DNA of 64,000 nt from NCBI GenBank assembly GCA_951394045.1, contig OX595992.1:310001-374000 (forward strand), given 5' to 3'. Origin of the DNA: Nitzschia sp. DOCU1 (lineage: Eukaryota; Bacillariophyta; Bacillariophyceae; Bacillariales; Bacillariaceae). A program made the translations under genes and the position numbers. How positions within the stretch are numbered: the stretch's first letter is position 1; each line of letters opens with the position of its first letter. The notes beneath the pieces are model-generated. The model searched no databases. It saw only the letters and a list, made by a program, of their open reading frames with translations, and was not told the DNA's origin. Positions 4,459-62,715 of this stretch are shown piece after piece.

Positions 4459-6284
4459 ATGGCGGTTGATTCAATGACAAATTTAGAACATGTAGAAGTG
4501 GTCGCTACTGTGGCTGACGATGGAACCATACGGACGCGGTCCTTATTAATGCCAGATTCTTATTCAGTAGCTACTTCGAGCCTAGTCGACAGGCCTGACG
4601 GCCCATTGAGTTTCAAGCAAGAGGCTCCTCTTCAACCATGCCTGGTGCCTGCTAGTAGCATGTCGGATTCAGAGGAATCGTCATTGTGTGGGTCCAATGA
4701 TGAGAAACCTGGCAACAATGCGCTAGTTCTATCAAAGTGTTCCACGTGCCCAACAGAAGCCGCATTGGCTGGAAACGAGATAACAAAATCGGAGGAAGGG
4801 GCCGTGGAAATGTACGATTGTCTTTCGGATCAGCTTACGAACTTCTTTTGTCCAGTGGAGCAACCAGCAAACTTCTGCGTGGAAAAGTCCGCGCCGTCAA
4901 CTCCTCCTCGAGCATCTAGCGAGAACCAACTTACAGTTAACTGCGCAGATGCCGGCTGTTCAGAGTATCAGTTCCGAGACTTTTTCGGACCACAAGACGG
5001 GGTAGACGTCCTTAGCTCGCTGCAGTTTTGGATGAACCCCGGCAAGAAAGAGGGATTGAAAGGTGGCACGAGACAAAAGCCACAAAATCGGTCCTCTTGC
5101 ACTCGACGGCGCCGATCACAACGCGTTCAAAAGGTTTGGAACTCGTGGCACGCAGTAGCAAGCATCCCACTTGCGCGAGCAAGGAGTTATCCGAGCGAAC
5201 CCCGATCACCTGCAATGTCCATGTCGGAAGATGATGATGTTTGCTATGATAGTGACCCGGGACAGGAGTATCCACAGAGGATACAGCGAGGGGAAGTGCT
5301 GGAGAATCCTCCCCCCAAGCCACACGAGGGCTTTCGGACACGCAGACCACCGCCCATCAACACAACACCCGAATTTGAAAACTGCTATGTGGGAGTCGCT
5401 AAGGTGCCCAGTGCACCACGAAATGACTCAACAACTCCCAACAAATTCAACTTTTATCCCCGCCGACGTGATACTTTTGTCGGCACTCATCAAAAGAACC
5501 GAAGACGTTTCTTCGACGCGCCTATTGCACCGACAGAGTTTGATTTGATGAGTCCGGAAGGGGAACACGTGCTTCGAACATTTATCCAGGTAAGATCGCA
5601 GATGGCATGGGGGCAACTCAGTCGTGACGCATTGCGAATAGGTTCTGACATTTTGACGCATGATTGATTCATCAGGAGGCTACCAATACCAAGATTCCAC
5701 TGGTGTGGCATCGCAGAACCAAGGGCGAGGATACTATCCAACGCAAAGCTCCTATCTCGGTAAACTGTGCCTTTGAGGTCGGCGCCCATTTGGATAACTT
5801 GGTGGTACAACCCAAGTTCACTTGGAGTCCGACCTATGAACCTCACCTGCCACAGCGCAGAATCCAGCTATCTGGAGCAGAGCCTGATTCGATAGAACTT
5901 TTGAGCATTATTCGGGTTGTGAAACCCACGCATCTCAATCGGAACTTGTACCCCTATGCTAGATTGGATCGTACTTGCTGCATCACAACGAACGATGAAG
6001 AGTTTCCGTATTTGGTCTTTGAGGCCCCCAGTACTCGCGAGCGCGATTGGCTAGTCAATGCTATGAAGATGATCGTGGCTCGGTTGGCTTCGATCATTAT
6101 TGTCCGGGACGAAGCCATGCTGTTGGAGTTCTTTACGCCGTATGCGGCGCTGATGCATTTGGAACCCCCGCCCAAGAGCAGCAGCAAAACTCAATCGACA
6201 CAAAAGGACGACGACGAAACAGCCGCACCCGTTCTTGATCCCAATGGAGAGCTTCAGCTCGTGTCATATGGGGGAGGTAAATAG
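4459..6284 (+). CDS. Unknown protein, disordered N-half and folded PH-like C-half
   Basis: Two exons (4459..5589, 5676..6284) joined in phase 0 across a GTAAG...CAG intron encode about 579 aa. I do not recognise the family. The first 330 or so residues are Ser/Pro-rich and low-complexity. The second exon is well ordered, with alternating beta-like segments (KAPISVNCAFEVGAHLDNLVV, IELLSIIRVVKP, YPYARLDRTCCITT) followed by a helix (STRERDWLVNAMKMIVARLASI). That pattern resembles a pleckstrin-homology-like fold, which is only a visual inference. A GTG six bases upstream is in frame, but the ATG is preferred. Presence of the intron supports a real gene. Confidence 0.7.
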
Positions 6285-21580: not shown

Positions 21581-23095
21581 TTAGCAATTGAATCCGGGTG
21601 GAGTTGTAACGTGCTCTGGCGTCCAATCGACCAGTCCTTGCGGGAGATACTTGTAGTTTTCTTTGAGACCCCGAAAGAATCGCGTCGCTAACAAGTCGTG
21701 TGAATAACTCGAGACTTCGGTGCCAATGAAAATTTTAGCTTGAATGCCAATAAAGAAATTGAGCATGGCACCCGGCGTACTAGGTTTCTTCTCATACACA
21801 GTCCCCACCAAAGAATTGGCACCAAATTCGTACACTTTGACACGACCATTCCACAGTCCAAAGTCTCGAGCCCAATTCAATGCTTTCAAATTCTCTACTG
21901 CTATCCAGTTGACTCGTTTCTTGGGGTGTGCGTTATCCAATAGACCTTCCTCTTCGAGATATTGTCGATTAATGGGTAAAAAGATTTTAGAAACGGGAGG
22001 ATCGGACCATTTGGCTTGGATAAAGTCAAAAATATCGGTCAAATTCAATACCTTTTTCTCTCGACACATGACGTGACGTTGCATGTCTGGTTCGACTCGT
22101 GCATGAAGCGTGAGATAGTCTTGTGGTTCTGTGGTTGTAGTAGTATAGGCCACCCCAAGCATCTGTTGTAGCTTTTCATTAATAATGGCTTGTAGATTGG
22201 GATGGGGTCGGAGCGCCCCTTGCAACATGAGAATTTCGATTGGATTCCGATGTCCTCCTTCGGCAGCATTGATTCCATTGCCCTTGGCATAGGCTATGTA
22301 TCCCGCCATGAGTTGATGTTGCTTTCCAAAGGCATGTGGTCGAACAGGCTTGTTGGTCAAGAGACTACCGTCCGCGTTTTGAAATTGCGTATCATTTCGG
22401 AACCATGGAGGATTGGCCCGAAGATTGTATTGATCATGCAAGAAAGGATCATGTTCTACTAGCCGGGGCAAGGTGGGATAATGCGAATTCCAATGAGGAA
22501 CATCCCATAGTTTCTGGAAGGGAATGAATCGGTAGCTTCCATAGGTATCCTTCTGGGCGAGACTGGTAAGAAGTAGTTGCCCGTGCCCCTGTCGAAGTGT
22601 GACAAAGACTAGAATGGTAAACGCCATCATTTGATTCCGATACCCAGAGCGAAAGCGACCTTCATAAAAGGCTTGTGTTGTAATGTTGGGCCAAGGTGCC
22701 AGGGACGTCATGGGTTGAAGCGAAAGATTGTGGAGATGAGCTGCCAATGCCGGAGTATCTGGCTGGAGTAGACCTAGTTCCGTGTTGCGTTGGCCATGTT
22801 CGAGGTCCAGCTGGACAATGGTCTTCTTCTTTGGCTGGCTACCGGTAGCAGCGACGACGACAGGTGCAGGGACCCATTCTCGAACAGGCTTGGATTCTTG
22901 TGGACCAAGATGGGATAGAAGGGCTGTAGAACGATTGAACCCATGCTCGAGCGGCATGATCATGGCAGCATCTGGCAACTTCTGGGGGACCCAGAGCGTT
23001 GTCTCGGTCCGTGACACCAGTGATACCGCAACGACCACGAGAACAACCAGCAGATATACAAGCCTCACATTGTGGCTTGGAGCTCGAAGACTCAT
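21581..23095 (-). CDS. Type II membrane protein, O-fucosyltransferase-like
   Basis: 504 aa, single exon. A short cytoplasmic N-terminus is followed by one signal anchor (LVYLLVVLVVVAVSLV, about residues 12-27) and a luminal domain, the layout of Golgi glycosyltransferases. The domain has YEGRFRSGYRNQMMAF near its start, and toward the end FIGIQAKIFIGTEVSSYSHDLLATRFF, which resembles the C-terminal donor-binding region of GT-B O-fucosyltransferases and related plant and algal enzymes. Several NxS/T sites are present. The donor and acceptor cannot be told from sequence. Confidence 0.65.
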   Translation of the reverse strand: MSLRAPSHNVRLVYLLVVLVVVAVSLVSRTETTLWVPQKLPDAAMIMPLEHGFNRSTALLSHLGPQESKPVREWVPAPVVVAATGSQPKKKTIVQLDLEHGQRNTELGLLQPDTPALAAHLHNLSLQPMTSLAPWPNITTQAFYEGRFRSGYRNQMMAFTILVFVTLRQGHGQLLLTSLAQKDTYGSYRFIPFQKLWDVPHWNSHYPTLPRLVEHDPFLHDQYNLRANPPWFRNDTQFQNADGSLLTNKPVRPHAFGKQHQLMAGYIAYAKGNGINAAEGGHRNPIEILMLQGALRPHPNLQAIINEKLQQMLGVAYTTTTTEPQDYLTLHARVEPDMQRHVMCREKKVLNLTDIFDFIQAKWSDPPVSKIFLPINRQYLEEEGLLDNAHPKKRVNWIAVENLKALNWARDFGLWNGRVKVYEFGANSLVGTVYEKKPSTPGAMLNFFIGIQAKIFIGTEVSSYSHDLLATRFFRGLKENYKYLPQGLVDWTPEHVTTPPGFNC

Positions 23096-25794: not shown

Positions 25795-28700
25795 TCATTT
25801 CTTAAAATGCAAGCCTGGACACGACGCATTCAATTTGGCGTTGATTCCCTTTTTAGTCGGTTTGGGGGTCAAGAACTCGTCTCCCGCGTCGTCCAGATCT
25901 ACATTTTCCAAATACTGCGACAAGAAATCGTTGACAGCGCTGCGTCGGGTTTTCGAAGTCTTCACTTCTTCCGCGCTCTTCATTTTGGCGTAATAACCCA
26001 ACCCCTTCTTGCGTGGTGTCCAGTATTTGATTGTTTTTGGTGCGCTGGGGTTGTACTCCTTGGGCGTGGGGCTTTCAGTAGGAGTGTCTTCTTTTTCAAG
26101 TTCGTCTGCATCAAATAACGTGACGTCGTGGTCCGAAAAGCGCCTCTTCATGTCTGATGGTTCAATCTTGGGCGGGACGTGGTCTTCCAAAGATTTAGCG
26201 CGTACGCTTTTGGTCTTGGACTTGCGAACGAGATCGTCGGGCAAGTCGAATCGAAGGTCCCGCAATGGCATTTGCACATCATTCAGATTGTCCTCTTCGA
26301 CATCGGCAAATGAATCGTCATCTGCATCTGATGCATACTCTTCAAAAATAAGTTCCGAACATTTCTTGGGATCGACGCGTTTGGCGTGAATGTCACACAT
26401 GGGCGGCATACCAATGAACCAGGCGTGTTCCAAGATCTCATGCACACCCTGACAGCCCAAACGCTCCTCGGGGTCCTTGAGAAACAGCAAGTCCGTCAAT
26501 TCCCGAACTTGATCACTAGCCGACACATCAGCGGACATCTCATAGGGATCTTCTTCGGTAATGGCTTGGTACAATGCAGATTGTTCCATGCCATCAAAAA
26601 AGAATGGATTTTCTCCCGAGACCATTTCGTAAATGACCACACCCAAAGCCCAATAGTCCACTTCTTTGGAATGCCCCGCATTGGAGATAATTTCAGGCGC
26701 CACATAATTGGGCGTTCCACAAAACGTAAACGTCTTTTCTCCTGGCAACAGTTTCTTGGCGAACCCAAAATCAACAATGATGGGATACCCATCCGCATCG
26801 AGCATGATATTCTCCGGTTTGAGATCGCGAAAGATATAACCCCGTGAATGCAAAAATCCTAGCGTATCCGCCACGACATAGGCATAAAATCGAGCTTCTC
26901 CTTCAGGAATGCCCGATTTCCAATTTCCATCCGCATCTTCCTTGTGGACTTGTTCCCACAATTCCCCGCCAGGAATCAATCCCAATAACATGTCCATGGA
27001 ATCGGCTGATTCATATGTGTGGACCAAATTAACGAGGAAGGGATGGTGTAATTCCTTGAGCGCTTTGATTTCATTTCGAATCGCGTCCTTGGATTCATCG
27101 GCGGAGAAACCATCTTCGTCGTCGTCGTCTTCACCTCCCAGCTTCTGAATTTTGAGTGCAAATTCATGGCGTGATGGATCATGATCTGGTAGCGTTGCTG
27201 CTACTAACCAAACTTCACCGAATTGACCTTCTCCCAGGACTTTGATAAACTCCAAATCGTCCTTTGAAGCCGCATACTTTTGCGTTGACTTTCGCAACCT
27301 TTCTTGTTGTTGAAAGATGGGCGAGTCTTCAAAATTAAAGATACCGGGGGACTTCTTGGACTTTTTCTTGGTAGCCTTTGTGGAAGGAGAGGGTGTTGTT
27401 TGCTTGCCGCTGGCAGTGCTAGCCGCAACGCTGGGCTTTGAGACCAAGGCCGAAGACGACGTCGTTTGCTTATGGACGGGTTTTACAATTTCTTCTTCTT
27501 GGAACGATACTAGGTCGTCATCATCGTCCGTACTGGCATCTTGAGAGACGAAACTTGCCTCATCGTCGCTAGTTTCTCGTTGATGTCGAGGCTGCGGTCC
27601 TCCCCCTCTTGTCATGATGGTTTCATAGTTATTGTAAATGTTATCATTCCACGTCGAACTTGCAGTTGACATGCGCGTTTTGGATTTGAGCTCTTCCATT
27701 ACCGATTGATATTGTTTCTGCAAAAGCGCACGAAAGGTTGTTTGACCCAATTTAAAGAGTTTCGTCACTCCACTCCCTGCGGAGATGGTAGCTTCGTTTT
27801 CTTTGCGAAGCAAGAGCCGTTCTTGCCCAAAGACGCCCCCGGCATGAATTCGTTCCACGAGTTTGCCGTTGATTTTAACATCGACGTGACCTTCTTCTAC
27901 AACATACATGTTGTCATCCTCTGCCCTATTTTCGCCTTGACGCTGCAAAATTTGCCCCTTGCGCATTTCGACCGGTTCCATGGCATTCAACAGAGTCTCA
28001 ACGGTAGACCCCGTATGACGCTTTAGAACATAGGTTTGGTTGGCCATGACGTTGCGAAGCAGATCCTTTTGTTGTGCTGTCTTGACGAACTTGGGCGCTT
28101 CAAAAGTCTTGATGTCCACTTTTAATTTGGGTGCGTGCACATTTTGAAAGGTTGTTTCGGTTGGCTTGAGTGGCACTGTGCCTTCAGGCAGCGCTGGTTT
28201 AATTCGATTCTTAACCTGGCGCAGGTTAAACGTAATGGCAAGGCGACCCCTGCTATGATGCGACCCCTGCATCATACGATTAGCTAATCGATGAGTACTG
28301 CTAGTCGCTAGCAGCTTCTTGTGCTCGGATGCCTCCAACAGAGCTTTCATTTTGGCCCCCATTGGTTTGGCTTGCGGTTTGGCACTGCCCTTGGGAATGA
28401 TGCTGAAATTCTTAGTCTTGCTGATTTCCCGGGGACGGTGAACTTGCTTGACCCCATCATGCACATTGGCTTTCTTTCGGTGATCCGAGGCATCCAACCG
28501 GGCATTTAAGTCTGCCGCATCCTTGATCCTGTCCGCGACAATCTCGCCGTCCAGACCTCTATTGTCGGCGTCGCGATAAGTTTTGCGACGCCCATGAATC
28601 ACCATGGATTCTTTACGGTGATTCGATTCATCTAGCAATTGCTGCAGATTATCTTCTTTTCGTTTGATAGAGTGGGGCGACGCGATATAACTCTTGTCAA

Positions 28701-28869
28701 AGACCCTGGCTCGATCGGCCAAGGAACGACGCTGGAACGAATGTCCTTCTTTGTTCGAAGACGATTCGGATGCCGTTGTAGAAGTCGTGGCATCGCTGCT
28801 TTTCTTGTGAGGGGGCGGGCTTTCCGATCTTCGCTGCTGCTGCTTGGATGGTCGGATTGAAGCTGGCAT
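25795..28869 (-). CDS. cNMP-binding-domain AGC kinase (PKG-like)
   Basis: 1024 aa, single exon. A basic disordered N-terminus holds three spaced copies of a short motif (LLDESNHRK at about 78, RLDASDHRK at 124, LLEASEHKK at 177). One cyclic-nucleotide-binding-like domain follows (about 270-395, GQILQRQGENRAEDDNMYVVEEG...FGQERLLL). A kinase domain (about 539-818) has LGEGQFGEVWLV, FALKIQK, FRDLKPENIMLD, DFGFAKKL, and CGTPNYVAPEII, all AGC features. The phosphate-cassette Arg (RxAT) reads NEAT, so cyclic nucleotide binding is doubtful. Most PKGs have two cNMP domains; this has one. Its gene converges tail-to-tail with the ABC transporter, about 100 bp apart. Confidence 0.9.
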   Translation of the reverse strand: MPASIRPSKQQQRRSESPPPHKKSSDATTSTTASESSSNKEGHSFQRRSLADRARVFDKSYIASPHSIKRKEDNLQQLLDESNHRKESMVIHGRRKTYRDADNRGLDGEIVADRIKDAADLNARLDASDHRKKANVHDGVKQVHRPREISKTKNFSIIPKGSAKPQAKPMGAKMKALLEASEHKKLLATSSTHRLANRMMQGSHHSRGRLAITFNLRQVKNRIKPALPEGTVPLKPTETTFQNVHAPKLKVDIKTFEAPKFVKTAQQKDLLRNVMANQTYVLKRHTGSTVETLLNAMEPVEMRKGQILQRQGENRAEDDNMYVVEEGHVDVKINGKLVERIHAGGVFGQERLLLRKENEATISAGSGVTKLFKLGQTTFRALLQKQYQSVMEELKSKTRMSTASSTWNDNIYNNYETIMTRGGGPQPRHQRETSDDEASFVSQDASTDDDDDLVSFQEEEIVKPVHKQTTSSSALVSKPSVAASTASGKQTTPSPSTKATKKKSKKSPGIFNFEDSPIFQQQERLRKSTQKYAASKDDLEFIKVLGEGQFGEVWLVAATLPDHDPSRHEFALKIQKLGGEDDDDEDGFSADESKDAIRNEIKALKELHHPFLVNLVHTYESADSMDMLLGLIPGGELWEQVHKEDADGNWKSGIPEGEARFYAYVVADTLGFLHSRGYIFRDLKPENIMLDADGYPIIVDFGFAKKLLPGEKTFTFCGTPNYVAPEIISNAGHSKEVDYWALGVVIYEMVSGENPFFFDGMEQSALYQAITEEDPYEMSADVSASDQVRELTDLLFLKDPEERLGCQGVHEILEHAWFIGMPPMCDIHAKRVDPKKCSELIFEEYASDADDDSFADVEEDNLNDVQMPLRDLRFDLPDDLVRKSKTKSVRAKSLEDHVPPKIEPSDMKRRFSDHDVTLFDADELEKEDTPTESPTPKEYNPSAPKTIKYWTPRKKGLGYYAKMKSAEEVKTSKTRRSAVNDFLSQYLENVDLDDAGDEFLTPKPTKKGINAKLNASCPGLHFKK

Positions 28870-52462: not shown

Positions 52463-54967
52463 ATGAGTATCCTTTACTCCTTGCCGAAACTTCAACTCGC
52501 TGTGGCTGTCGCTCTGGCTTTGTTCCCGAGTCGTTTCCATGCATCGGATGTAGTTGCATCAGCAATTCCTCGAGCCTGCGAGCAACCTGAAAAGTACCGC
52601 TTTTGCGATGCCTCGCTTCCGCTGGATGAACGGCTAGATGATTTGATCCACCAACTAGATCTAGAGGAGAAGCCTATTCTTCTAACAGCCCGAAAGTCTC
52701 CCAAGGGCAATATCAGCCGACTAGGAATTCCGGAATGTAAGTGATGGCAACACTCAACACATGCCATCAGGTTTCTCGGTCTCACATTCGATTTCTCAGA
52801 TAACTGGGGCGCGAATTGTATGCATGGAGTTCAATCACGATGTGCACCGGATGGCAGATGCCCCACATCCTTTCCTAATGCAAATACGCTTGGCGCAACT
52901 TTCAATCAGACAGTTTGGCGTCAAATGGGAGGTGTGATTGGAATTGAGTTGCGAGCTTTATGGTTGCAAAATGTCGGCGAGAACCATGACTCCGGCCTTC
53001 CACATTTAGGGTTGGATTGTTGGTCTCCAAACATTGGAATATTGAGAGATCCGCGGTGGGGACGATCATTGGAGGTGCCATCGGAAGACCCGTACTTGAA
53101 TGGACTCTTCGGGACTCAATACACACTGGGATTGCAAAACAATTCGGCTCTAGACGACCGCTATTTGCAAGGAGTTGCTACTATCAAACATTTCGTCGCC
53201 AATTCGTTGGAAGGAATTGGAAACAGAGGTATCACGCGGCATTCCGTCGATGCAAAGATTAGTCTCTACGATTTGGCCTCAACATATCTACCAGCATTCA
53301 AAATGTCCGTGGAGCAGGGCGGAGCAGCTGGGGTCATGTGTAGCTACAACCGTGTCAACGGAGTCCCAATGTGTGGAAACGAATTGTATCTCAAGCGTGT
53401 GCTTCGACGAGAATGGAAATTCCGTGGTTTCGTGAATAGCGACTCGGGAGCCCTTGACGACTTTGACAGGTACCACAATTACACAAAATCCCGCAACGAG
53501 ACTGTCGAGGTAGCTATTCAAGCCGGGTGCGATGTAGAAAGTGCAGCGTGGTCTCACAATCAGCCATGGGACACGGGTAGCAACTACATTGACTATTTGG
53601 TGGAGGCTGTCCGGAGTGGGCGGGTACCCGAGGCGGCCGTGGATCGGGCTGTCCGAAATGCAATGGAAATTCGTTTCCGACTAGGTTTGTTCGATCCCAT
53701 TGAAAACCAGCCCTTTTGGAAGGTCGCTCCCGAAGTTGTACAATCTGACTTTCATGTACAGGCCGCTCGTGACGCCACAGCACAGGGTTTTGTGCTCTTA
53801 AAGGACATGCCTTCCTTGTTGCCGCTAGATGCCAGTCAAAAGATTGCGTTGATTGGTCCCCATGTCTACGACCGCTACGCCATGCTGGGAAATTACCTTG
53901 GACAGATTTGTATCGAACCCCACTTTGAATGCGTGACGAGTTTTCAGGAGGGCTTTCAGAATGTGACGGAGGCTTTTGGTGGCACGCTGTCTACTGCCAA
54001 GGGTTGTGATGTGTACGGTACCAATACCTCATCGTTCGCAGCAGCAATACGTATCGCCCAAGAATCCGATGTGGTTGTCTTTATGGGTGGCCTGAATACT
54101 TCCATCGAAGCAGAAGCTAGGGATCGAACGGATATTTTGTTGCCGCAAATTCAGAAAGATTTGATATCAAAGTTGGCCAAGGTCAACCCAAACATTGTTC
54201 TCGTCATGATGCATGGAGGCATGGTGGCAATTGATGACATTATTGATTCTGTGGCTAGCGTCGTGTCGATCGGCTATCCTGGGCGCTACGCCGGTGACGC
54301 TCTACCCGCCGCCTTGTTTGGACTCACAGACCGAGCCTGGGGAAAGCTGGCGGTGACGTGGTACAAGCAAAGCATGATGCAAGAATTGGATATGGTGGAC
54401 TTTGATATGAGTCGACCTCCCGGGCGCACCTACCGATACTACACCGGGGATCCGCAGTTTGAATTTGGTTTTGGAATAAATCCACTGACGACTTTTCGGT
54501 TTGAAACAGTCCAGCTGACTGCCGAAGGGACGTCTTGTACTTCCGCTGCAGAGCGTACGACTCGGCAGCGCACCAAGCAGGCCGTGGTTGCCGCAACTCT
54601 GCGCAACACTGGAGATCGTTCCGGGGACGAAGTCGTGCTGGCGTACATGATCCCTCAAGATATTCCAAAGTCCGAACCAGCTTCTCGGCTTAAGAAGCAA
54701 TTGTTTGCTTTTGAGCGCTATCACTTGGAGCCCGGGGAAGCCGTTGAAGTGTCCTTTCCAGTGAACAGTACCGGCTTCCAACTGTTTGATACCGATGGTC
54801 TGCCCACTCTTTACTCTGGGCGATATCTTATCCGCCTCGATACTGGAACAATGGCGATTGAATTGCCATTGGATGTTCATCCAGAAGCCGAAGACCACAG
54901 CGGTTGTATCATTTCCATCCCGTCAAACGAAGGCTCCACATTCGGAACCCCCAAAGTACAGCTGTAG
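52463..54967 (+). CDS. Secreted glycoside hydrolase family 3
   Basis: Exons 52463..52736 and 52800..54967 (63-nt intron, GTAAGT...CTCAG) give 813 aa. A signal peptide (LQLAVAVALALFPSRFHA) predicts secretion. The (beta/alpha)8 domain has YNWGANCMHGVQ, PRWGRSLEVPSEDPYL, GVATIKHFVANSLE (KH), and GFVNSDSGALDD with the catalytic nucleophile Asp at about residue 306. The beta-sandwich and fibronectin-III-like C-terminal domains follow, with NTGDRSGDEVVLAYM. The closest textbook group is beta-xylosidase/beta-glucosidase of GH3; the substrate could be a plant-type or algal wall glycan. No transmembrane tail. Confidence 0.93.
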
Positions 54968-56623: not shown

Positions 56624-59398
56624 TTATCTGGGCAGTCGGTGTTCCCCGTCCTTGCTCCAGTGAATTTCTTGAATCGGGAGTTCAAACTGATCCATAAAAG
56701 GAGCTGGGTCCTCACCGTCGTAGATAAAGTTCAACATTTTGTGGTTCGTCTCATCGATTTGGGCGCAGTACATTCCCATGACGACCCGGATCTGACCCTT
56801 TTGTTCATACTCGGCAGCCGACGTTCGATGGTATCCCCAGTCGGGAATGACCATGGCGCGGTCATGTTGATAATTGACGGCAACCACAATATCCCCATTG
56901 TCACTCTGAATGTCGAGCTCCGGCTTGGAGCCCTCCACTGTAATGATGGGAAAGATCAGATTGTAGCCAACTTCACCCGTCGCATACACGTCCGCATGCA
57001 TAAACGACTTGTCTGCTTCGGAAACGCCCATGAAGGACGTGTGGAAGCAAGTCAGCGTGTCCAACCCAAAGTACGTTCCAGTCGCATTCAATACTTGGTC
57101 ATAGCCACCTTGTCCAAACGCCCGAAATACGCTCGTGCGGGCATTTTCGTCCCAAGCAGCAATATAGTGCATATTAAAGTTCCAGTCCACGCTCTTGTAC
57201 CGCTGGGCAAACCACTGCTCGGGTGGACCATCATGCTGATCCGAGTCAAAGACGTACCATTCGTCACTTCCCAAAATGTCGTCTCCCAATAGTTGCTCGT
57301 ACAAGTTGATGATTCCGCGCTCGTCGGCATATTCGTAAACGTGTTTTGTAAGGTTTTGTGGAAGTCCAACGACAAAAAAGTTCTTGCCAACGGGTTGTCC
57401 GTTGTGCTTCCACATCAATTGACGGATTTCCCCCGGCTGGAGGCTCTCAATCGGTTCGACTTCATAGTCCATTAATTGATTGAGCCAGTTGGCTGGAAAG
57501 AAGCCGTCTGGTACGCCAATCTCGTGACGAAAGGGTTGGACATCTTGCTGTTGTCCATTGGTCACATGCTTTTCCCAAGCTGCTTTCCACGAGTGTCCAT
57601 AGTCAATGAAAATCTCTTCTCCGGGCTTGATGTCTCGTGTGGCCACAAATTCCAACAAAAGCTGCCCGCTTTGGTCTGTCACATCCAGTGGGTGCGCCTC
57701 CAACCAATCCTTGGGCGAGCGCTTCAACAGGGCTTGGGCCCGTTGGTCACTGGGCCAACGAATCTCTGCATTGACCTTGGATGGGTCGATCGCATGGTTG
57801 ATAAAGTTCACAATGGGCGAGTAGGGAACCAACAACAAATCTGACTCGGGGTGACCATAGCAGTAGTTCAACAGCAATTCCTGCCCGATGGGTTTGTTGA
57901 AATCGAGAGTATGTAGAATCTTGGAGGTTTCTTCGTCTGTCTCGTACAGGACCAAATCGGCTCGCTTGAGAGCCAGCAAGGGAGCAGTTGAAATGATTGA
58001 GTTTTCCGGTAGGGTTCGGGAAGCAAAGGCTCCACGACCGGCGCCTGGGATTGTGGATTTGCCAGCCCTGAGATTGTCTAGGCAAGCACCATGCTCCTGA
58101 AGCCACTCGAGTTCTCGGGAGGGAGGCTCCTCGTCGTCTTCGTCTTCGTCTTCGTCCTCCTCCTCGAAATCTTCACTTTGGTCTACAACGGGCTTGTCCT
58201 CGTCATCAACCCGAGAGTCAAGAATTCTTAGGGATGCATTCGCCTGAAGATCCGTGGTTGGAGCCACATATTGCTCGGGTTCCTTGTCCTTTTGAGCCAA
58301 GGCGGCTTGGCGAACGACTTCTTCCACATGCCGGCGTCGTTTCTCTTCCACTTGCTTCAGTTTCTCTCTTCGGGGCGCAATTTTCTTGTTCATGGCATTT
58401 TTCTTGTCCCGCTTGTCCATTTCACTGAGAAGTTCCTCGTAGACGATTTGATGGTCTTCCATATACGTATCCAACGTTTCATATTTCGGAATGCCCTTGC
58501 TGTTGTGGCTAAAGTCCTGTTCACTTTGCTTGACATCATATCGACTGTGCCATTCATCTCCATAATAAATTAGCAGTTCACTACCAGCTTCAATATCACG
58601 GCCAGCTACAAAGGCACTTCCTGGCGAGAGCTGAGTAAAATCCGATTTCTGTGCTACCTCACGAGGATCTTCCACTTCCAGGTCGTCCGCATCGCCCGTC
58701 TCCCAGTTCAATGTGACTCCTTCGATATCCAATAATCCCACATTGATCCAATCCGCATGAGAATTGACCAACGAGGCCATTCCTGGTGCAAATACATTAA
58801 TGGGAATTCGCTCTCCGTGATCCTTTTCGGCGAAAAAGTAGTAAAACAGACCGGCGTCAGCCCCATTCAAACCCAGAGGAGTCGGAAAGTGAGCCGGAGA
58901 CAGTTGGGGAAAGGTTCCATCATGATACGAATGATGGAATTCATCTGGTTGTGTCGGCCACACATATCCCAGCCATGACAAAAAGCGTTGATGGCCCCGA
59001 TACGGAATCGTCTTGTACTTGTCCACTATTGGAATCAACATATCCTGAAACCACGCATCTTCGTCGGCAATACCCGACCAGGAAATTGTCTCGCCGTGAT
59101 CTAGGTCGAATCCTGTAAAGATTCCCAGACCAGCATTGGGAATCGTAGAGCGGGCCATGTATAATGCACAAACTGGTGGAGGCGTTTGTTGCTGACTGTT
59201 TGTTTGGTTCGTCTTGAACGTTACAGCGCGAATGGATTCGTCGACTGAGACAATGGTCAGGGGAAGCTGCGACGATGACGACGACGACAGAGAACCATCA
59301 CAGGCAACGACAGTTTCTGCGGCTTCCGCAGCCAAAGATGCTGCCACAGCTCCCAGAGTGGTCGTTAGAAAAAGGAGTGCGAGACTTTGCTGTAGCAT
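56624..59398 (-). CDS. Secreted SET-SET-2OG-oxygenase-like protein (copy 1)
   Basis: 924 aa, single exon. A signal peptide (LALLFLTTTLGAVAASLA) starts it. SET-like domain 1 (about 75-300): STIPNAGLGIFTG, MASLVNSHADWINV, AGSELLIYYGDEW. A charged helical linker and acidic run follow (about 340-430). SET-like domain 2 (about 440-630): STIPGAGRGAFASR, VNFINHAIDPSKVNAEI, PGEEIFIDYGHSW. The C-terminus (about 740-910) has FMHADVY, GYNLIFPIITVEGS, GYHRTSAA and QIRVVMG, fitting the HxD...H...R of Fe(II)/2-oxoglutarate oxygenases. A secreted, double-SET protein is unusual since SET enzymes normally act on histones. Its divergent neighbour is a paralogue. Confidence 0.82.
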   Translation of the reverse strand: MLQQSLALLFLTTTLGAVAASLAAEAAETVVACDGSLSSSSSSQLPLTIVSVDESIRAVTFKTNQTNSQQQTPPPVCALYMARSTIPNAGLGIFTGFDLDHGETISWSGIADEDAWFQDMLIPIVDKYKTIPYRGHQRFLSWLGYVWPTQPDEFHHSYHDGTFPQLSPAHFPTPLGLNGADAGLFYYFFAEKDHGERIPINVFAPGMASLVNSHADWINVGLLDIEGVTLNWETGDADDLEVEDPREVAQKSDFTQLSPGSAFVAGRDIEAGSELLIYYGDEWHSRYDVKQSEQDFSHNSKGIPKYETLDTYMEDHQIVYEELLSEMDKRDKKNAMNKKIAPRREKLKQVEEKRRRHVEEVVRQAALAQKDKEPEQYVAPTTDLQANASLRILDSRVDDEDKPVVDQSEDFEEEDEDEDEDDEEPPSRELEWLQEHGACLDNLRAGKSTIPGAGRGAFASRTLPENSIISTAPLLALKRADLVLYETDEETSKILHTLDFNKPIGQELLLNYCYGHPESDLLLVPYSPIVNFINHAIDPSKVNAEIRWPSDQRAQALLKRSPKDWLEAHPLDVTDQSGQLLLEFVATRDIKPGEEIFIDYGHSWKAAWEKHVTNGQQQDVQPFRHEIGVPDGFFPANWLNQLMDYEVEPIESLQPGEIRQLMWKHNGQPVGKNFFVVGLPQNLTKHVYEYADERGIINLYEQLLGDDILGSDEWYVFDSDQHDGPPEQWFAQRYKSVDWNFNMHYIAAWDENARTSVFRAFGQGGYDQVLNATGTYFGLDTLTCFHTSFMGVSEADKSFMHADVYATGEVGYNLIFPIITVEGSKPELDIQSDNGDIVVAVNYQHDRAMVIPDWGYHRTSAAEYEQKGQIRVVMGMYCAQIDETNHKMLNFIYDGEDPAPFMDQFELPIQEIHWSKDGEHRLPR

Positions 59399-59982
59399 CG
59401 TGCTGGCGAGATTTGTCGTCTTTCAGCAGGTCGAATGAAAGCTTTCGACTTGGACGGAAACTGCACTGCGTCCTTTGTTGTTGTTCTTCGTTCAATCGAA
59501 TAGAATGGAGGGGGTGGAGGGACTTTCTTTCTATTTACTCCATGGTCGACATGCCAAAGGTCGGCTTGTTCGTGTGCAAGGATTGGAAGGGATGACTCTT
59601 GGGAGAAGAAAAATGGCTTCGGATTGTTGATCGCACCGACTATTTTGTTTCCGTTCACCGGCCAACAGATATCATAGAGAGAGTGGGTGCTTCCACAAGA
59701 TTTCCCGCCAAAAATTTAGACAATTGACGTTAACCAGACGTTCACATTGGATTTCATCCATTGGCCACCTATCTTCATTTATTACCCGCGTGACACGCTC
59801 TTTGCGGGGGCACATCATCCGTGCTCCAGATATGTGAAAACGTTCGTCCACTTGCCGGCTTGCTTTCTCGCTGAAAGGTGTTGGCTTCCGACTACCTTCG
59901 CATTTGTTTCGATGCTACTTGGCTTCATTATCTTCAGCATCTGTTGAGATTCCTATTCAGTCCATCAGGAAAGAGATCAAGG
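59399..59982. promoter_or_regulatory. Shared promoter region of the divergent SET pair
   Basis: About 580 bp between two ATGs that face away from each other. This suggests co-expression from a bidirectional promoter. No specific transcription-factor site recognised. Confidence 0.5.
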
Positions 59983-62715
59983 ATGATGGTTCAGTCTGCA
60001 AAGAACATCGCCATCGGTCTGATGCTGATGCCCTTTGTTCTTTCTTTGGTCCAATCGGCGGCGGCGACAAAAGAGACTGTCGTGGCCAGTGATGGTTCCT
60101 CCGTGCCTTTGATAAGCACCACCAAGGACTCTGTGTTATTAACTAACGCTAATAAGAACGAGACCGCCGCCCAGGAGCAAAGCCCACCGCCAGTTTGTTC
60201 CCTCTACATGGCTCGGTCTACCATTCCTGATGCTGGCCTGGGTATTTTTACCGGGGTTAACCTGGAACGGGGAAAGACCATTACGTGGGCGGACATTGCC
60301 GAGGAAGACGCCTGGTTTCAAGACTTGCTCATCCCCATTATGGATGGGTATAAGACCATTCCCTACCGTGGTCAACAACGATTCTTATCCTGGCTAGGAT
60401 ATGTTTGGCCCGCCCGTCCCGATGTCTTTTATCCCTCGTACACGGACAAGACATTTCCTCAGATCTCCCGAGCCCACTTTGGAACCCCCGAAGGCCTTAG
60501 TGGGGCAGATGCGGGTTTGTTGTATATCACGTATTCGCAAGATGGTCAAGACGCTTTTCTAGTTAGTTCCTTTGCTCCTGGAATGGGCTCGCTGTTAAAT
60601 TCGCATGAGGAGTTTGCCAATGTTAATTTGCGAGAAGGAGCCCCAATGGCATCGACCTTGCCACAAAACACTGCTGCTACCGTCACCGACTTGACCCATC
60701 AATCCGACTTTTCTCCACTAGCTCCTGGTAGTGGCTTTATTACCCAGACGAAGATTGAAGCCGGAAGTGAACTCTTGATTTACTACGGGCCGGAATGGCA
60801 TGAGCGTTACGACGAAAAGACGAGTGAGCAATTAGAAAAGTGCCATAAGATCAATTGTATCCCACCTGTGACAGGGGAGGAGCAACTGGAAGCGGTAACG
60901 GAGGCAGACTTGGAAAATTTGCCATCGGAACAGGATAAGCGCGACAATGAAAGGTTAATGAAAATCAAAACCATCGGTCAGAAAGAACAGATTGATCAGG
61001 TCGAGCAAAACCGCCGTCGGCAGGTACAAGAGTTTTTGAAGACAAAAAGTCAGGAAGCATCGTCGCTGCATGAAGAAGTCGCAGAAAGCGTGGCATCTTC
61101 TAGAAAGCTTGACTCTTCCAAGTACGTCCGTGAGGTCCCACCGACGCCATCGGAACCAGAAGAAGAAGATGATGATGATATTGTTGAGGAACAACCTTCC
61201 CGAGAAATCCAATGGCTTCAGGAACATGGTAGTTGCTTGGACAATCTCAAGGCTGGCAAATCCACAATCCTAGAATTTGGTCGCGGAGCCTTTGCCACCC
61301 GACTTTTACCTCGGAACAGCATCATTTCCTCTGCCCCCTTGTTGGCACTCAAGCGCGCCGATTTGGTCATGTATGAGGAGAATAAAGAGTCAACCAAGTT
61401 TTTGACAACACTCAACTTTGACAAAGTTGTTGGACAAGAACAGATCTTGAACTATTGCTACGGTCACCCCGAGTCGGATTTGCTGTTGGTACCGTATGCA
61501 CCGGTCGTCAATTTCATCAACCACGCGGATGATCCAGCCAAGGTGAATGCGGAAATTCGTTGGCCCAGTGACAAACGAGCTCAGGACCTGTTGAATCGCT
61601 TGCCCAAGGATTGGTTGGATGCGCACCCACTGGATGTGACAGACCAAAGTGGTCAGCTACTATTTGATTTTGTCGCCACACGAGACATCAAGCCCGGAGA
61701 AGAGATTTTCATTGACTATGGCGACAATTGGAAAGCCGCATGGAAGGAGCACGTTACTAGTACTACTGGGCAACAAAAACCATCCGGCGAAATGGGTTTT
61801 GCACAAGGGTTTCGTCACGAGATTGGGGTGCCAGATGGCTTTTTCCCAGCCAACTGGCTGAACCAATTAATGGAGTATGAAGTGGAACGGATTGAGCACT
61901 TGGAGCCCGGGGAAATCCGCCCATTGACGTGGAAGCACAATGGCCAACCCGTGGCCAAGACTGCGTTTGCGATTGGAATCCCACAAAATTTGACCAAACA
62001 AGTACACAATTTCGCTAACGAGCGCGGCATTCTCAGCGTGTACGAGCAAGTTCTGACGAACGAAGTGCTGGGAAGCGACCAGTGGTACGTCTTTGATGCT
62101 GACCAACACGAGGGAACCCCGGAACAGTGGTTTGTCCATCGTTACATGAATGTGGCCTGGGATTTTAACATGCACTACCTAGCTGCGTGGGATGAGACGG
62201 CTCGCAAGAACGTGTATAGAATGCTTGGGAAGTATGGGTTTGATCCGGTTTTGGATGGACTCGGCACCTACTTTGGCTTGGACACGCTGACCTGCTTCCA
62301 TACGTCTTTCATGGGTGTCTCGGAGGCCGACAACTCCTTTATGCATACCGATACATATTCGACTGGCGACGTTGGCTACAATCTCATATTTCCCATCATT
62401 AGCGTAGATGGTTCCAAGCCCGAGCTTGATATTCAAAGCGACAATGCAGATATTGTGGTTGCTGTCAAATACGAACACGATCGGGCCTTTCTCCTTTCTG
62501 ATAACGGATACCACCGCACATCCGCCGTGCAATACGACGACAAAAGCCAGATTCGCGTCGTCCTTGGCCTGTACTGTGCACAAATTGACGAAACGAACAA
62601 CGTCGTTATGAAACATCTCTACGACGGGGAAGACCCTGCCCCCTTCATGGATCAGTTCGAACTTCCTATTCAAGAGATTCATTGGAGCAAAACTGGAATT
62701 CGCTTACCGAGATAG
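59983..62715 (+). CDS. Secreted SET-SET-2OG-oxygenase-like protein (copy 2)
   Basis: 910 aa from the ATG of MMVQSAKN, which yields a clean signal peptide (IAIGLMLMPFVLSLVQSAAA). A GTG 35 codons upstream is in frame but would bury the signal. The order matches the paralogue at 56624: SET-like 1 (STIPDAGLGIFTG...GSELLIYYGPEW), basic coiled-coil linker, acidic run (EPEEEDDDDIVEE), SET-like 2 (STILEFGRGAFATR...VNFINHADDPAKVNAEI...GEEIFIDYGDNW), and the oxygenase-like part (FMHTDTY...GYHRTSA...QIRVVLG). The GxG of SET 2 reads FGRG rather than AGRG. Both proteins end in LPR; no ER-retention signal. Confidence 0.82.
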   Translation: MMVQSAKNIAIGLMLMPFVLSLVQSAAATKETVVASDGSSVPLISTTKDSVLLTNANKNETAAQEQSPPPVCSLYMARSTIPDAGLGIFTGVNLERGKTITWADIAEEDAWFQDLLIPIMDGYKTIPYRGQQRFLSWLGYVWPARPDVFYPSYTDKTFPQISRAHFGTPEGLSGADAGLLYITYSQDGQDAFLVSSFAPGMGSLLNSHEEFANVNLREGAPMASTLPQNTAATVTDLTHQSDFSPLAPGSGFITQTKIEAGSELLIYYGPEWHERYDEKTSEQLEKCHKINCIPPVTGEEQLEAVTEADLENLPSEQDKRDNERLMKIKTIGQKEQIDQVEQNRRRQVQEFLKTKSQEASSLHEEVAESVASSRKLDSSKYVREVPPTPSEPEEEDDDDIVEEQPSREIQWLQEHGSCLDNLKAGKSTILEFGRGAFATRLLPRNSIISSAPLLALKRADLVMYEENKESTKFLTTLNFDKVVGQEQILNYCYGHPESDLLLVPYAPVVNFINHADDPAKVNAEIRWPSDKRAQDLLNRLPKDWLDAHPLDVTDQSGQLLFDFVATRDIKPGEEIFIDYGDNWKAAWKEHVTSTTGQQKPSGEMGFAQGFRHEIGVPDGFFPANWLNQLMEYEVERIEHLEPGEIRPLTWKHNGQPVAKTAFAIGIPQNLTKQVHNFANERGILSVYEQVLTNEVLGSDQWYVFDADQHEGTPEQWFVHRYMNVAWDFNMHYLAAWDETARKNVYRMLGKYGFDPVLDGLGTYFGLDTLTCFHTSFMGVSEADNSFMHTDTYSTGDVGYNLIFPIISVDGSKPELDIQSDNADIVVAVKYEHDRAFLLSDNGYHRTSAVQYDDKSQIRVVLGLYCAQIDETNNVVMKHLYDGEDPAPFMDQFELPIQEIHWSKTGIRLPR

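What the first reader, a model, noticed from the sequence alone, without database searches (positions are those of the whole stretch)
56624..62715. Divergent pair of secreted SET-SET-oxygenase proteins: candidate silaffin lysine-modifying enzymes
Seen: each protein has a signal peptide, two SET-like domains with GxG, NHxxxP-like and GEExxIDYG motifs, and a C-terminal block with HxD...H...R spacing. Known: SET domains methylate lysine; 2OG oxygenases can hydroxylate lysine; diatom silaffins, which are processed in the secretory pathway, carry N-methylated lysines, including trimethyl-delta-hydroxylysine. Inference: one polypeptide could perform or coordinate both steps on silica-forming or other wall proteins. 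I know of no described enzyme with this fusion.
Basis: partly seen in the sequence, partly recalled or inferred. Interest (0 to 1): 0.88.

Follow-up and report, generated by a model that had tools for sequence, protein, structure and literature searches.

The report
Secreted methyltransferase-oxygenase fusion in diatoms
Two neighbouring genes, apparently of a diatom, each encode a secreted-looking protein that joins lysine-methylating (SET) domains to an iron- and oxoglutarate-dependent oxygenase domain, a plausible but untested candidate for an enzyme that methylates and hydroxylates proteins of the diatom silica wall.

Summary
Two divergent intronless genes (56624-59398 minus; 59986-62715 plus) encode signal-like N-terminus, SET1, linker, SET2 and a C-terminal domain. 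SET2 passes Pfam; SET1 is divergent. The C-terminal domain matches no Pfam, NCBIfam or PDB sequence, yet AlphaFold2 models it confidently and all 50 listed Foldseek matches are Fe(II)/2OG oxygenases. H801/D803/H857/R871 sit on the expected strands and are invariant in 35 chosen domains. The bare spacing is no evidence: 24% of shuffles have a loose version. Secretion is supported by hydrophobic N-termini (60 of 66) and a co-varying cysteine pair. The genome has 8 loci of this domain; every organism name shown is a diatom. The domain also follows a P4H-like oxygenase (63 of 244 retrieved proteins). Most likely the protein methylates lysines of secreted wall proteins and hydroxylates them or neighbours; trimethyl-delta-hydroxylysine is the obvious product. 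Fold and compartment rest on prediction; activity and substrate are inferred. A diatom-specific SET family tied to wall formation was published in 2020 (Nemoto et al., not held), so the methyltransferase half is not new; the oxygenase half I did not find in print.

The parts
56624..59398 (-). gene A, 924 aa, intronless: signal-like N-terminus, SET1, linker, SET2, 2OG-oxygenase domain
   Evidence: ORF; Pfam; model, mean pLDDT 85.7, pTM 0.84
59324..59398 (-). signal-peptide-like segment of A (residues 1-25; end point by eye)
   Evidence: hydrophobic 11-mer starting at residue 8, mean Kyte-Doolittle 1.95
58514..59191 (-). SET1 of A (residues 70-295), divergent SET
57569..58111 (-). SET2 of A (residues 430-610), canonical SET
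   Evidence: PF00856 46.8 bits; N534, H535, Y600 conserved in 66, 67, 65 of 70 rows
56627..57532 (-). 2OG-oxygenase domain (Ox) of A (residues 623-924)
56990..56998 (-). HxD metal-ligand motif, H801 and D803
   Evidence: 70 of 70 rows each; invariant in 35 rows
56828..56830 (-). distal metal ligand H857
   Evidence: 68 of 70 rows; invariant in 35 rows
56786..56788 (-). predicted 2OG-carboxylate-binding R871
   Evidence: 69 of 70 rows; invariant in 35 rows
59986..62715 (+). gene B, 909 aa (910 if ATG 59983), same architecture
   Evidence: for positions; 72% identical to A in Ox and 78% in SET2
60193..60819 (+). SET1 of B
   Evidence: positions, alignment
61225..61755 (+). SET2 of B
   Evidence: PF00856 45.0 bits
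61810..62712 (+). 2OG-oxygenase domain of B; H787, D789, H843, R857
   Evidence: alignment, positions
59399..59982 (.). intergenic stretch between the two divergent starts, possible shared promoter
   Evidence: position only; not tested

Best explanation
Each gene makes a secretory-pathway enzyme with two chemistries in one chain. SET2, perhaps helped by the divergent SET1, methylates lysine side chains of secreted wall proteins using SAM. The C-terminal domain is an Fe(II)/2-oxoglutarate oxygenase that hydroxylates the same or nearby residues. The most economical product is epsilon-N-methylated, delta-hydroxylated lysine, a modification known from diatom walls. Shown by sequence or prediction here: ORFs, SET2 identity, oxygenase fold, conserved catalytic residues, N-terminal targeting pattern. 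Inferred: catalytic activity, wall-protein substrate, lysine as the oxygenase target.
Against: No activity, localisation or expression data. SET domains normally work in nucleus or cytosol (recalled); SAM supply to the secretory lumen is assumed. SET1 lacks the canonical NH and often the Tyr. The same Ox domain sits behind a P4H-like domain without SET (63 of 244 proteins, some with only part of Ox), so its target need not be methylated lysine. Foldseek TM-scores are modest (0.27-0.44 by query length), as expected at 7-14% identity, so the fold does not point to a substrate. Some SET-type Ox copies have lost the quartet. The KXXK neighbour belongs to a multicopy family, and the adjacent paralogue seems split by a retroelement. 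No ER-retention tail was seen; both proteins end in RLPR.
Confidence: 0.45

Rival explanations
1. The Ox domain is a prolyl hydroxylase-type enzyme. Fused to a P4H-like domain it makes 3,4-dihydroxyproline; fused to SET it hydroxylates prolines next to lysines that SET2 methylates. The two chemistries then act on one protein but on different residues.
For: 63 of 244 retrieved proteins carry a P4H-like domain followed by Ox, some with only part of Ox; two such hits are named by UniRef, one prolyl 4-hydroxylase alpha subunit domain-containing and one Fe2OG dioxygenase domain-containing (P0176 and P0194); PHD1, PHD2, P3H1 and bacterial P4H are among the fold matches of Ox; 3,4-dihydroxyproline is known from diatom walls (PMC4557024 passage).
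Against: Fold matches do not give substrate; non-prolyl enzymes rank as high. The P4H-like label is weak: PF13640 matches the own-genome copy below its cut-off (22.3 against 27 bits), and no 2OG family was found in P0158 and P0169 or P0176, P0196, P0205 and P0226. Ox and the P4H-like domain show no profile similarity.
Confidence: 0.22
2. The SET domains methylate long-chain polyamines, free or already on lysine, and Ox modifies the polyamine or a protein carrier.
For: PMC11554505 and PMC11151724 (passages) cite Nemoto et al. 2020 as proposing that the SET family acts on substrate proteins and long-chain polyamines; PMC3820600 (passage) speaks of polyamine-synthesis enzymes fused to a histone-type methyltransferase domain that potentially N-methylates them; wall polyamines are N-methylated.
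Against: SET2 keeps the protein-lysine SET motifs; nothing here shows polyamine binding.
Confidence: 0.13
3. The SET part is inert or regulatory: SET1/SET2 bind substrate or SAM and the oxygenase alone is the enzyme, or the oxygenase removes the methyl groups that SET adds.
For: SET1 motifs are degenerate in many members; Ox occurs without SET; some 2OG enzymes demethylate (recalled).
Against: SET2 residues G456, N534, H535 and Y600 are conserved in 65-68 of 70 rows.
Confidence: 0.1
4. The proteins are plastid, nuclear or cytosolic lysine methyltransferases.
For: Best-known SET proteins act there (recalled); the SET fold matches listed are mostly histone methyltransferases.
Against: Hydrophobic N-termini in 60 of 66 rows, no plastid-type motif in 67 of 70 by a crude pattern, co-varying Cys pair.
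Confidence: 0.05

Closest known systems
[quoted passage not shown] 2020, Mar. Biotechnol. 22:551; seen only as cited in PMC11554505 and PMC11151724)
   Same: Diatom SET proteins linked to silica wall formation; every organism name shown among the listed homologues here is a diatom
   Different: No passage that I read mentions an oxygenase domain; direct identity of the genes could not be checked
Fe(II)/2-oxoglutarate oxygenase superfamily (SnoK, SnoN, OkaE, AsqJ, PHD2, P3H1, GriE)
   Same: Fold, HxD..H ligands and Arg on the last strand
   Different: 7-14% identity in the structural alignments, no Pfam, NCBIfam or PDB sequence match; fused to SET
SET-domain lysine methyltransferases (PFL0690c, MLL1, vSET, S. 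pombe Set7)
   Same: SET2 motifs and fold
   Different: Two SETs in tandem, secretory-type N-terminus, oxygenase attached
P4H-like diatom oxygenases with a cysteine-rich, sometimes ShK, tail
   Same: Share the Ox domain
   Different: No SET domains; the P4H label rests on sub-cut-off Pfam and two UniRef names

Membership tests
Fe(II)/2OG oxygenase superfamily | double-stranded beta-helix fold | tested here: met
Fe(II)/2OG oxygenase superfamily | HxD/E...H metal triad | tested here: met
   H801, D803 in 70 of 70, H857 in 68 of 70; invariant in 35 chosen rows
Fe(II)/2OG oxygenase superfamily | basic residue for 2OG on the last core strand | tested here: met
   R871, 69 of 70, on strand 871-879
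Fe(II)/2OG oxygenase superfamily | 2OG- and iron-dependent oxidation | not testable with these tools
   needs protein
SET lysine methyltransferase | SET sequence profile over cut-off | tested here: met
   SET2, 46.8 and 45.0 bits, cut-off 22.4
SET lysine methyltransferase | intact motifs in SET1 | tested here: inconclusive
   NS for NH in both window proteins, Asn212 in 39 of 70; Tyr279 is Tyr in 38, Cys in 22 of 70
SET lysine methyltransferase | methyl transfer to lysine | not testable with these tools
   needs protein
Nemoto 2020 diatom-specific SET family | SET domain, diatom only; ER-type signal (this last feature recalled from the abstract) | tested here: inconclusive
silaffin-modifying enzymes | activity on silaffin lysines | not testable with these tools
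   no activity data
prolyl 4-hydroxylases | P4H sequence family | tested here: inconclusive
   Ox matches no Pfam family above chance and shows no profile match to the P4H-like domain, but prolyl hydroxylases are among its fold matches

The most novel reading that the evidence does not exclude
A single secreted polypeptide both trimethylates lysine (SET2) and hydroxylates it at the delta carbon (a new 2OG-oxygenase family), making the trimethyl-delta-hydroxylysine reported in diatom walls in 1970; the same oxygenase module, swapped behind a P4H-like domain, makes 3,4-dihydroxyproline, so one diatom module supplies the second step of both unusual wall amino acids.
Probability: 0.22. Interest if true: 0.9.

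Novelty: new variant of a known kind. Interest (0 to 1): 0.72.

Why it matters
Modified lysines of silaffins influence silica precipitation (PMC4557024 passages). The passages I read propose candidates, namely the Nemoto SET family and a methyltransferase domain fused to polyamine enzymes, but report no demonstrated enzyme for lysine methylation or hydroxylation. This gives a concrete pair of genes, the catalytic residues to mutate, and an oxygenase family that Pfam and NCBIfam do not recognise. It links two chemistries in one chain, and the P4H-like version of the same module offers a matched comparison.

Tried and rejected
Motif spacing alone as evidence: rejected, since 24.4% of shuffles have a loose version. 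Plastid targeting: a crude motif in 3 of 70 rows only, none in the window pair. Homology of Ox to the P4H-like domain by profile comparison: none. Sequence search of PDB with the Ox profile: one hit, E 0.13, unrelated. NCBIfam: two chance-level matches among 8 members. Ox relatives in viral contigs: 8 pattern matches, none confirmed. Foldseek against predicted viral proteins gives many 2OG oxygenases, which adds nothing on function. P0232 (P4H-like by profile, SET by precomputed Pfam) was left aside as a probable gene-model fusion. Proteins with doubled SET1-SET2 units show no Ox core by the 8-row profile, though a 48-row profile finds weak partial pieces of 26-92 bits there. Quartet in all 154 profile hits (classes assigned by a hand list of ids): of 122 SET-type hits, 93 keep all four residues, 20 only have gaps, 9 carry substitutions (3 of them NNHY; one of the 9 also has a gap); of 32 stand-alone or P4H-type hits, 26 keep all four, 5 only have gaps and 1 has Tyr for the first His plus gaps. 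The second copies in Ox-Ox proteins were not examined separately. The 70 rows are 68 of the 120 proteins listed, picked by coverage, plus the window pair; the 35 rows were likewise picked. One search listed 120 of 389 hits; the rest were not seen. The architecture counts come from proteins fetched with these domains as queries and include fragments, so the proportions are biased. SET1 was not folded or fold-searched on its own (no structure jobs left), and one search does not show which SET domain its SET matches cover. No paper on this subject combining diatom, SET domain and 2-oxoglutarate was found (1 paper, unrelated by title and abstract start); other literature searches. Of papers I saw only search listings and passages.

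Full report
What is there. The window lies at 310001-374000 of contig C8 in a 52 Mb genome, inferred to be a diatom's from its named homologues. Two divergent intronless frames, 56624-59398 minus and 59986-62715 plus, encode proteins of 924 and 909 aa. They are 61% identical in SET1, 78% in SET2, 72% in the C-terminal domain, and 34-36% in the N-terminus and linker. dN/dS between them is 0.152 in SET2 and 0.066 in the C-terminal domain (NG86, dS 2.65 in the latter, so only the direction should be trusted; it was not computable for SET1 and linker).

SET domains. Pfam finds SET over its cut-off in both proteins, best at SET2. A profile of 70 homologues matches histone methyltransferase chains of the PDB with E down to 1.5e-5. 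SET2 keeps G456, N534, H535 and Y600 in 68, 66, 67 and 65 of 70 rows. SET1 keeps N219 in 68 of 70, but both window proteins read NS where NH is canonical, that Asn is kept in 39 of 70 rows, and Tyr279 is Tyr in 38 and Cys in 22 rows. The two SET profiles match each other over 34 N-terminal columns at 98% probability. I read SET2 as the likely methyltransferase and SET1 as divergent, possibly a helper.

Where it works. Of 70 aligned rows 66 begin with Met, and 60 of these have a strongly hydrophobic 11-mer starting within the first 45 residues; a crude test, not SignalP. A crude plastid-type motif was seen in 3 of 70. C77 and C439 are both Cys in 68 of 70 rows; C784 and C878 are both Cys in 45, neither in 21, mismatched in 3 and gapped in 1. 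This is the pattern of disulfides and fits an oxidising lumen; the distances in the model were not measured.

Family. The own genome has 8 Ox loci: the window pair, C14, C7, three on C6 within 33 kb, and C17. The C17 gene is different: a P4H-like 2OG oxygenase (PF13640, 22.3 bits, under the 27-bit cut-off), then Ox, then a cysteine-rich tail that looks ShK-like by eye but matches no Pfam family. It is apparently one gene with one intron, since homologues have both domains in one frame. ShK itself passes in P0132 and is precomputed for P0212. Pfam finds no 2OG family in six P4H-like-Ox proteins scanned, P0158 and P0169 and P0176, P0196, P0205 and P0226, so P4H-like is a provisional name. Of 244 proteins retrieved in three searches, 81 are SET1-SET2-Ox, 63 P4H-like-Ox (some with part of Ox), 36 Ox only, 21 doubled SET1-SET2 without Ox core, 16 P4H-like only, 14 SET2-Ox, 5 with two Ox after SET, and 8 of other mixtures (biased and with fragments). 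Organism names in the listed rows are all diatoms: Seminavis, Nitzschia, Pseudo-nitzschia, Thalassiosira, Attheya, Chaetoceros, Bacillariaceae, and by taxid Corethron and Entomoneis.

What it may do. Diatom walls contain epsilon-trimethyl-delta-hydroxylysine and 3,4-dihydroxyproline; in silaffin-1A the trimethylated lysines are hydroxylated at delta, and KXXK has been suggested as the recognition motif of the modifying enzymes (PMC4557024 passages; PMC3820600 passages). A secreted SET-oxygenase fits the first of these two-step modifications; a P4H-like-Ox protein would fit the second. One C6 paralogue lies about 250 bp, tail to tail, from a secreted-looking KXXK-repeat protein with 26 KxxK matches against a mean of 4.9 in shuffles, the highest excess among 126 ORFs examined in the window and L017-L024. 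That protein has ten clear relatives in the genome, four of them 46-51 kb away, so the neighbourhood is a lead only.

Prior work. PMC11554505 and PMC11151724 (passages) cite Nemoto et al. 2020 for diatom-specific SET methyltransferases thought to regulate wall proteins and long-chain polyamines; PMC11554505 reports 12 SET genes inhibited by salinity, in a study of salinity-induced wall changes. None of those passages mentions an oxygenase, and dioxygenase, hydroxylase and 2-oxoglutarate do not occur in the main text of PMC11554505. The 2020 paper is not held. So the SET half and the wall connection are known; the oxygenase identity and the P4H-like fusion I did not find in print.

Verdict. Oxygenase fold about 0.95, secretory location about 0.9, active lysine methylation by SET2 about 0.75, wall-protein substrate about 0.5, both steps on one lysine about 0.25 (my estimates).

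Noticed in passing
L018:3029-3730 (G000:C6:3623028-3623729): Secreted-looking protein with a KAP/KAT tandem tail, hence dense KXXK motifs (26 against 4.9 in shuffles), about 250 bp tail-to-tail from a SET-Ox paralogue; ten clear relatives in the genome, clustered on C6 and C1.
   Followed up: partly
L018:3990-9831 and L019:3-2642 (C6 about 3.624-3.633 Mb): This SET-Ox paralogue seems split by a copia-like retroelement (RVT_2 30.3 bits, just under the 31.6 cut-off): the SET1 start lies beyond it, and ORFs at both ends of it begin with the same peptide.
   Followed up: partly
L024:4120-6523 (G000:C17 about 1.104-1.107 Mb): P4H-like oxygenase, Ox and a cysteine-rich tail, apparently one gene with an intron at about 5034-5112; P0170-P0217 carry both oxygenase-type domains in one frame.
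   Followed up: partly
proteins among P0058-P0120 (for example P0060, P0074, P0083): Proteins with SET1-SET2 repeated twice and no Ox core, some with ShK domains by precomputed Pfam.
   Followed up: partly
P0010 (Seminavis robusta): A SET-SET-Ox homologue is named Guanylate cyclase in public records, probably a misannotation.
   Followed up: no
window 52820-54967 (+): Glycosyl hydrolase family 3 gene next to the pair.
   Followed up: no
window 25798-28869 (-) and 21584-23095 (-): Protein kinase with cyclic-nucleotide-binding domain, and a weak O-fucosyltransferase match below its cut-off.
   Followed up: no
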